Part shown: positions 24,587-25,672 of the stretch, one piece after another | Position numbering within the stretch: the first letter of the stretch is position 1 | Layout of the letters: each line of letters opens with the position of its first letter | Source of the DNA: Cloeon dipterum | Taxonomy: Eukaryota; Arthropoda; Insecta; Ephemeroptera; Baetidae | NCBI RefSeq assembly: GCF_949628265.1 | Contig: NC_088789.1 | Location: 25,785,883-25,849,882, forward strand | Direction of reading: 5' to 3' | Length of the DNA: 64,000 bases | Made by a program: the position numbers and the translations under genes | Notes under the pieces: generated by a model | Told to the model about the DNA's origin: nothing | The model's input: only the letters and a program-made list of their open reading frames with translations | Databases searched by the model: none

Positions 24587-25672
24587 TTAACGGTACGATT
24601 TCTGGTATCTGGCACGAGCACCAGGACCGCCAAACTTCTTGGGCTCGCAGCGTCTGGGATCTGCCACCAACATCGTCCTGTCGTACTGGATCAAGATGTC
24701 CTTGATCTCTTTCTTCGATGCCTCATCGACATCTGCAATCAGGATGAACCAATTCGTTAAATAAGCACCAAATAAGAGACTCAAAAAAGAGACTACGAAA
24801 CTTAATTAAAAAAGAAACTTACACTTCTGGTAATAAGCAACCAGAGCCTTCGAGATTGCCTGTCTGATGGCATAGATCTGTGCTACGTGACCACCTCCAT
24901 TCACGCGGACCCTGATGTCCACATTCGAAAAGCGATCCTGCAAAAGGATAACGTTTTAGGACTGCTTTAAACTGGCAGTTTAAGTTTAAGCTACTAACCT
25001 TTCCCAAAAGAAGGATGGGCTCCTGCAGCTTGAATTGCAGAATTCGTGGCTCGACCAGCTCCAGAGGTCGGCCATTTACCTTAATCAGGCCATTACCCAA
25101 TTTGCAGTAGGCAACTGCAGTGGCACTTTTCTGTAACAAACATGAATTCGAAATAAGCAAAATGCAAAAGGAGACTAATTTTGGTTTAAATCCATCTTAA
25201 AATTAAAATATCTAAATTTATTTTTAAAATCCCTGATCTTAAAACTTTTAAGTTTAGTGGTATCTTGCAATGTGTGCATGAAGTGCCTGCCTTGCCCCTT
25301 CCAAGGGATCTTTGATGGGAAACAAAGGCAGAAAGTGCCGATCTGCATCAACCCGCCCAAGACCCAGCATGCAGGGTTCCGCGGTAATAAAATGTCAACA
25401 AACGTTAAAATAACACGATTTGGGCCTCAATTGACAGATTGAGCGCTGAAAGATTGAGATTCATTTCGGAAAATAGCAGCGTGACAACATGCGGGAGCAC
25501 ATGGCCGGCGAGGATAAACAAGTGGAATTATTAACTTACTTTGCGCCCGAAAACCTGGACCGACTGGATAGGCTCCTTCTGCAAAAGAAAATGAACGATT
25601 TTAGACACAAGGATAACATTAAAATAGAAAGAAACCGCGTAAAATTGGTTCTAGCTTTACCTTGGCGTTCAT
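24587..25672 (-). CDS. RpS16: 40S ribosomal protein S16, copy B
   Basis: Five exons at 25661-25672, 25540-25578, 24999-25130, 24823-24937 and 24587-24732, with exon lengths identical to copy A. The encoded protein is the same as copy A residue for residue: I count 18 base differences in exons 3-5 and none changes an amino acid. All splice sites are kept, as is most of the upstream TOP-like pyrimidine tract and the divergent promoter, so the gene is probably expressed. Its 3' end lies at the insertion joint; the first AATAAA after the stop codon on this strand (about 24535) belongs to the flanking R1 repeat. Copy A has no AATAAA in the corresponding place. Confidence 0.93.
25261..25385 (-). 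ncRNA. Candidate intronic structured RNA, copy B
   Basis: The counterpart of the two-hairpin core in RpS16-A intron 2. Over about 120 bases I see one substitution (acccacccaag versus acccgcccaag), while the flanking intron has several indels. Both stems are unaffected. The same reservations about the class apply. Confidence 0.4.

What the first reader, a model, noticed from the sequence alone, without database searches (positions are those of the whole stretch)
24587..25672. RpS16 duplicate: 18 silent exon differences, yet nearly identical introns
Comparing the RpS16 copies at 8856-9933 and 24587-25672 by eye, exons 3-5 (393 bp) differ at 18 positions, all synonymous. Introns 1, 3 and 4 (about 233 bp together) differ at only 3, and exons 1-2 not at all. 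Neutral divergence after duplication should make introns at least as different as silent sites. A pattern limited to 3' exons is what conversion of one copy by a reverse-transcribed (cDNA) template from a more diverged RpS16 allele or paralogue would leave. Alternatives are strong constraint on the introns or mosaic haplotypes.
Basis: seen in the sequence. Interest (0 to 1): 0.72.

Follow-up and report, generated by a model that had tools for sequence, protein, structure and literature searches.

The report
Ribosomal gene exons outpace their introns
Two copies of an essential ribosomal protein gene differ at 18 silent exon positions while their short introns are nearly identical, and a second ribosomal gene family in the same genome shows the same thing, suggesting that exons and introns of these genes were copied from different sources.

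Summary
The two RpS16 copies encode the same 147 aa and differ at 18 silent sites in exons 3-5 (3, 10 and 5), against 1/82, 1/61 and 1/90 in introns 1, 3 and 4.

Copy 2 is a ~4 kb block placed between ~960 bp repeats. The repeats differ by 14/824 and the block outside RpS16 exons by 83/3495, so the exons are the outlier and no intron constraint is needed.

The pattern recurs: three RpS23 copies differ pairwise at 16-18 of 99 silent sites with no amino-acid change, while introns differ by 1.7-3.5%. Three P450 pairs do not show it. RpS2 copies show the reverse: exons 0/372, intron 46/590. RpS5 shows an ordinary DNA tract.

RpS23 fragments share one intron type but carry two exon types, so exons and introns have different genealogies.

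Best explanation: exon-limited replacement from an older, diverged RpS16 sequence, more likely through a spliced (mRNA/cDNA) template, because introns of 61 and 90 bp were spared. Against it: no donor, RpS16 or RpS23 retrocopy, or intron loss was found. Selection on silent sites and DNA-level conversion remain open.

The parts
24587..24732 (-). RpS16 copy 2, exon 5: 5 silent differences from copy 1
24823..24937 (-). RpS16 copy 2, exon 4: 10 silent differences in 30.5 synonymous sites
24999..25130 (-). RpS16 copy 2, exon 3: 3 silent differences
25540..25578 (-). RpS16 copy 2, exon 2, identical to copy 1
25661..25672 (-). RpS16 copy 2, exon 1 (ATG), identical to copy 1
8856..9001 (-). RpS16 copy 1, exon 5
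9092..9206 (-). RpS16 copy 1, exon 4
9268..9399 (-). RpS16 copy 1, exon 3
9801..9839 (-). RpS16 copy 1, exon 2
9922..9933 (-). RpS16 copy 1, exon 1
9207..9267 (-). intron 3 of copy 1 (61 bp), 1 difference, between diverged exons
9002..9091 (-). intron 4 of copy 1 (90 bp), 1 difference, between diverged exons
8832..12822 (+). source block: RpS16 (-), a small ORF, and the 5' part of an SRBD1/Tex-like gene (+) that goes on beyond the block
24564..28549 (+). derived block copy; its SRBD1 part is cut off at the block end and has a stop codon
23571..24565 (+). repeat R, left of the inserted block
28549..29535 (+). repeat R', right of the inserted block; unique part 14/824 different from R (age yardstick)

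Best explanation
A ~4 kb block holding RpS16 was copied 16 kb downstream fairly recently. In one of the two copies, exons 3-5 were then (or in a haplotype just before) overwritten by exon sequence from an older, diverged RpS16 lineage of the same or a very close species. The introns between them kept the young sequence. The most likely template is a spliced RpS16 transcript or its cDNA: it pairs with about 390 bp of joined exons, and the 61 and 90 bp introns are left as unpaired loops in the chromosome and kept by repair. The same kind of exon-limited exchange acted on RpS23 and, with a close donor, on RpS2. Shown: exons and introns have discordant divergence in RpS16, RpS23 and RpS2, and exon and intron types are reassorted among RpS23 copies and fragments. 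Inferred: the existence of a donor, the spliced template, the loop retention and that one copy rather than both was changed.
For: Silent divergence in RpS16 is 7-10 times that of the rest of the block and of the flanking repeats, while introns 1, 3 and 4 match them. An HMM with an exon effect beats pure mosaicism by 12 lnL units. In RpS23 the three pairs give silent 18/99, 18/99, 16/99 against introns 18/1053, 37/1045, 21/1053, with 0 amino-acid changes; Fisher P 4e-11 to 2e-7. Fragments f1 and L027 share one intron-1 type, yet f1 carries L021's exon-2 states and L027 has ACG/AGG at codons 9 and 11 like L022 and L023, so all four intron/exon combinations exist. RpS2 shows the classical opposite: exons 0/372, intron 46/590, sharp at the exon borders, with introns that align well. 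Neither fast silent evolution nor slow introns explains RpS2 together with RpS16 and RpS23. In three P450 pairs introns are not significantly slower than silent sites. Spliced transcripts can template break repair in yeast and human cells (PMC12065846, passages).
Against: No third RpS16, no retrocopy and no exon-4-like sequence elsewhere in the assembly; no RpS23 retrocopy. No RpS16 intron was lost, and whole-intron deletion is the scar reported for RNA-templated repair in PMC12065846 (passages). The three RpS23 copies differ from each other about equally, which needs several donors or independent change rather than one event. In RpS23 the 3' exon is identical. Intron 2 of RpS16 also has a cluster of ten differences beside exon 3. 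RpS2 could reflect strong codon constraint plus recent truncation of one copy, and RpS5 shows only an ordinary DNA tract. The four-combination result could also come from repeated silent mutation. Loop retention was not tested.
Confidence: 0.42

Rival explanations
1. DNA-level exon-limited conversion: an old RpS16 paralogue or allele whose introns no longer align converted the exons one by one, because only exons were similar enough to pair. Nothing is reverse-transcribed.
For: RpS23 still has an old paralogue, L025, whose exons 2 and 3 are 78-83% identical and whose introns did not align. RpS5 shows an ordinary DNA-level tract that includes an intron, 1 difference in 540 bp, so DNA conversion works in this genome.
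Against: Needs three separate short events (exons of 115-146 bp) in RpS16; no such paralogue was found; L025 differs in amino acids and does not supply the RpS23 silent states as a set.
Confidence: 0.2
2. Selection on silent sites: either the duplicates are old and ongoing conversion homogenises introns while selection keeps silent exon differences (a silent-site version of the opsin pattern), or the copies were rapidly recoded after duplication, for example to escape small RNAs made against the gene.
For: Red/green opsins show low-divergence introns around a diverged exon kept by selection (PMC3924837, passages). RpS23 differences are clustered, 8 of codons 72-81, P = 0.0004 with a window size chosen after seeing the data, three-way and about equal. 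RpS23 fragments exist, one inverted beside a gene copy.
Against: All 18 RpS16 changes and all changes among the three RpS23 copies are silent, with no known target of selection. Introns of 61 and 90 bp would have to be converted without touching differing exon sites 6-19 bp away. No RpS16 fragments were found at E up to 10, though very short ones could be missed. f1 shares L021's exon states but not its intron.
Confidence: 0.18
3. Patchy DNA conversion between the two copies, with low- and high-divergence tracts falling by chance on introns and exons.
For: Divergence along the block is uneven: the two-state HMM without an exon term finds about 0.9% and 6.4% states; the SRBD1 part has long identical runs.
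Against: Without an exon term the fit is 12 lnL units worse and 0 of 4000 simulations reach the exon count for each of two parameter sets; it recurs in RpS23.
Confidence: 0.1
4. Assembly or haplotype artefact: copies or haplotypes merged so that exons come from one and introns from another.
For: One unnamed assembly; no reads available.
Against: Differences are silent only; the duplication has clean junctions with 1-3 bp microhomology (read); independent loci on two chromosome-size contigs, C4 and C2, show it.
Confidence: 0.06

Closest known systems
Primate red/green opsin genes (and duplicated RNase genes): introns homogenised, exons diverged
   Same: Paralogues whose introns are far more alike than an exon, attributed to conversion (PMC3924837, passages seen).
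   Different: There the exon differences said to be kept by selection change amino acids, and the introns are long (length recalled); here every exon change is silent and introns of 61-118 bp are spared.
Yeast ribosomal protein gene duplicates under gene conversion
   Same: Ribosomal protein paralogues with coding sequence and noncoding DNA evolving discordantly (PMC3924837, passages; PMC5755908, start of abstract in the listings).
   Different: Yeast pairs are described as highly conserved with divergent introns, as RpS2 here; RpS16 and RpS23 are the mirror image.
RNA-templated double-strand break repair / reverse-transcriptase model of intron loss
   Same: A spliced transcript serves as template for a chromosomal gene (PMC12065846, passages; PMC3652778, start of abstract in the listings).
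   Different: The described scar is loss of whole introns; here all RpS16 introns are kept.

Membership tests
cDNA/RNA-templated gene conversion | Change confined to exons, borders at splice sites | tested here: met
   RpS16 outermost differences lie 5-45 bp from the ends of exons 3-5, introns 3 and 4 have one difference each; RpS23 and RpS2 likewise discordant; intron 2 of RpS16 has its own cluster of ten
cDNA/RNA-templated gene conversion | An expressed donor carrying the transferred states | tested here: not met
   no third RpS16 in the assembly; for RpS23, f1 matches L021's exon states but no donor for all copies; expression not testable
cDNA/RNA-templated gene conversion | Other traces of reverse transcription: intron loss or retrocopies | tested here: not met
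   none for RpS16 or RpS23; of 18 further ribosomal genes searched by protein 16 matched a single place (counts are lower bounds), introns not examined gene by gene
Interlocus DNA gene conversion | Tracts ignore exon borders | tested here: not met
   not met for RpS16 and RpS23; met for RpS5
Opsin-type selection against exon conversion | Functional amino-acid differences in the exon | tested here: not met
   0 non-synonymous differences in RpS16 and in the three RpS23 pairs
Ribosomal protein uS9/S16 | Full-length S16 sequence | tested here: met
   Pfam PF00380 E 1.4e-38, profile 1-121 of 121; best solved chain 4v6w_AQ, 40S ribosomal protein S16, E 4.7e-83

The most novel reading that the evidence does not exclude
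In this animal the exons of ribosomal protein genes, which are highly expressed, are repeatedly rewritten in the germline from spliced transcripts, so that exons and introns of one gene belong to separate gene pools; this brings silent diversity into exons (RpS16, RpS23) or erases it (RpS2) without losing introns.
Probability: 0.22. Interest if true: 0.85.

Novelty: new variant of a known kind. Interest (0 to 1): 0.58.

Why it matters
Introns and silent sites are the usual neutral clocks. Here they disagree by roughly five- to tenfold in two ribosomal protein families but not in the three P450 pairs scored, so clocks, duplicate dating and paralogue trees for such genes can be badly wrong. If a spliced template is responsible, it would be a natural record of RNA-templated rewriting that keeps introns, a class of event that searches for intron loss would miss. 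RpS16, RpS23 and RpS2 together make that question testable by sequencing relatives.

Tried and rejected
Rejected: intron constraint (introns 1, 3 and 4 match the rate of R/R'). Rejected as a general rule: silent sites faster than introns in this genome. Three P450 pairs, chosen among those that aligned, gave silent 34/359 vs introns 75/369 (introns faster, P = 4e-5), 38/287 vs 31/260 (P = 0.70) and 5/183 vs 3/170 (P = 0.72); the last pair had first been scored with a wrong frame for one exon. SRBD1 in the same block: 10/236 vs 7/393, P = 0.08. Rejected: a known RNA family in the introns (Rfam gathering thresholds: 0 matches in the window). Rejected: L025 as the single donor for RpS23. Codon preference gave no direction that I could see from the list of 18 codon pairs; no codon table was computed. 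Actin copies aligned only in exons at 85-91% and were not used. Papers: searches listed no title or abstract that reports silent-only exon excess over introns in ribosomal protein duplicates; beyond listings I saw only passages of two papers, and one search's terms mostly caught unrelated uses of 'retroconversion'. No outgroup was available, so the changed copy could not be named. The species was not identified; that it is not Drosophila melanogaster rests on its S16 differing from chain 4v6w_AQ, which I recall to be that species.

Full report
What is there. The window holds two complete RpS16 genes on the minus strand, at 8856-9933 and 24587-25672, in a 190 Mb assembly of 10 contigs. Both have five exons, GT-AG introns and the same 147-aa product, a full-length S16 protein.

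Exons 3, 4 and 5 differ at 3, 10 and 5 sites, all silent, which is 0.085, 0.33 and 0.15 per synonymous site. Introns 1, 3 and 4 have one difference each in 82, 61 and 90 bp. That weakens a clean 'introns identical' statement but not the contrast around exon 4.

The surroundings give the yardstick. Both genes lie in a ~4 kb repeated block with a small open reading frame and the first part of an SRBD1/Tex-like gene. That gene goes on beyond the block beside copy 1 (its S1 domain is at 14065-14700); in copy 2 it is cut off and has a stop codon, so copy 2 is the derived one. Copy 2 sits between two copies of a ~960 bp sequence, with 1 and 3 bp of microhomology at the joints as I read them, as expected of a template-switch insertion (inference). 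The unique part of these flanking repeats differs at 14 of 824 sites and the block outside the RpS16 exons at 83 of 3495. At those rates RpS16 should show about 2-3 silent differences, not 18 (P 1.5e-12 and 3e-10), while introns 1, 3 and 4 are as expected. So the exons are unusual and these introns ordinary.

Could it be a chance mosaic? Divergence in the block is patchy. A two-state HMM with no exon effect reached lnL -446.6; with a separate exon factor -434.6 and a factor of 6.6. In 4000 simulations for each of two parameter sets, none gave 18 exon differences. The SRBD1 exons of the same block have 10 of 236 silent differences and 8 non-synonymous ones, with introns 7 of 393; the RpS16 silent rate is higher than SRBD1's (P = 2e-4).

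Is it a habit of this genome? Three P450 duplicate pairs were scored: silent 34/359, 38/287, 5/183 against introns 75/369, 31/260, 3/170. In one pair introns are faster (P = 4e-5); in the other two they are slightly but not significantly slower (P = 0.70, 0.72). So there is no general slowing of introns.

A second family shows the pattern. RpS23 has four complete copies on contig C2 (two of them inverted arms 99.9% identical), a diverged paralogue on C3 and two fragments; all four complete copies translate to the same 143 aa. Among the three distinct ones, silent differences are 18, 18 and 16 of 99 sites with no amino-acid change; introns differ at 18/1053, 37/1045 and 21/1053. Intron 1 of L022 and L023 is identical over 237 bp, yet exon 2 has 8 silent differences. 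The differences cluster at codons 7-28 and 72-81 (P = 0.005 and 0.0004 by a scan over all codons with window sizes chosen after seeing the data; the same test in RpS16 gives P = 0.07). The last exon is identical in all three, so there is no 3' bias.

Exons and introns are reassorted. The fragments f1 (L022:2920-3192) and L027 share a distinct end of intron 1. f1 has the exon-2 states of L021 in codons 2-26, L027 a mixture with ACG/AGG at codons 9 and 11. With L021 and L022/L023 all four intron-exon combinations exist, which needs exchange near that splice site or repeated silent mutation.

Other ribosomal protein genes. Of 18 searched with human proteins, 16 matched one place in the genome; RpS2 matched three and RpS5 two (the tool calls such counts lower bounds). 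RpS2 copies L089 and L090 are identical over 372 exon bp but differ at 46 of 590 intron sites. The third copy agrees in exon B but for two adjacent sites, and differs in the part of the intron that was fetched. This is the textbook sign of exon-limited homogenisation, although codon constraint and a recent 5' truncation of L090 could also give it. The RpS5 tandem pair has one ordinary tract of near identity that includes an intron (1 difference in 540 bp, L088:426-965), then 10 differences in the next 73 exon bp and a strongly diverged next intron. So of four multi-copy ribosomal genes looked at, two show silent excess, one the opposite and one a plain DNA tract.

How it most likely works. Either mutation and selection on exons differ, or exons were copied from elsewhere. 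Fast silent change cannot explain RpS2, and silent constraint cannot explain RpS16 and RpS23; exon-limited exchange explains all three, with distant donors in two and a close one in the third. The short introns (61, 90, 118 bp) favour a spliced template, since a DNA donor would need several tracts under ~190 bp. I therefore favour mRNA/cDNA-templated conversion with introns kept as loops. The donor, the template and the loop step are inferred. Against it stand the missing donor and the absence of RpS16 and RpS23 retrocopies and of RpS16 intron loss, and the equal three-way divergence in RpS23, which needs several donors.

What is known. Transcript-templated break repair is described in yeast and human cells, with whole-intron deletion as its scar (PMC12065846, passages). 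Introns homogenised around a diverged exon are described for opsins, kept by selection on amino acids (PMC3924837, passages). Silent-only divergence of this size around short near-identical introns did not turn up in the listings. Selection on silent sites, for instance to escape small RNAs, is not excluded; no RpS16 fragment that could make such RNAs was found.

Limits. One assembly of unknown species, no reads, no relatives, so the changed copy cannot be named.

Noticed in passing
window 23227-23670 and 31579-31912: A dispersed ~440 bp element; 2508 candidate places genome-wide, of which 40 were scored, most at 92-94% identity (second window place).
   Followed up: partly
L022:2920-3192 (G000 C2:7976785-7976939 for the exon part): An RpS23 exon-2 fragment lies inverted about 0.7 kb from the start of the RpS23 copy L022, so a read-through transcript could form a hairpin with arms of about 270 bp.
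   Followed up: no
L023 and L024 (G000 C2:7.986 and 7.999 Mb): Two RpS23 copies are inverted arms 99.9% identical over more than 2.2 kb.
   Followed up: no
L027 (G000 C2:7981080-7981244): A rearranged RpS23 piece joins about the first 25 codons to part of exon 3, covering much of the two silent-variable patches.
   Followed up: partly
L088 (G000 C3:30854600-30858600): RpS5 tandem pair with a 540 bp near-identical tract across an intron, between strongly diverged ends.
   Followed up: partly
window 12493-12526: Four silent differences in 34 bp of an SRBD1 exon beside a long stretch of near identity.
   Followed up: partly
window 11342-14700, 16173-16826, 17988-19133: Genes for an SRBD1/Tex-like S1-domain protein (name recalled from its domains), a pyrimidine 5'-nucleotidase (UMPH-1) and a 60KD_IMP/Oxa1-like protein.
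   Followed up: no
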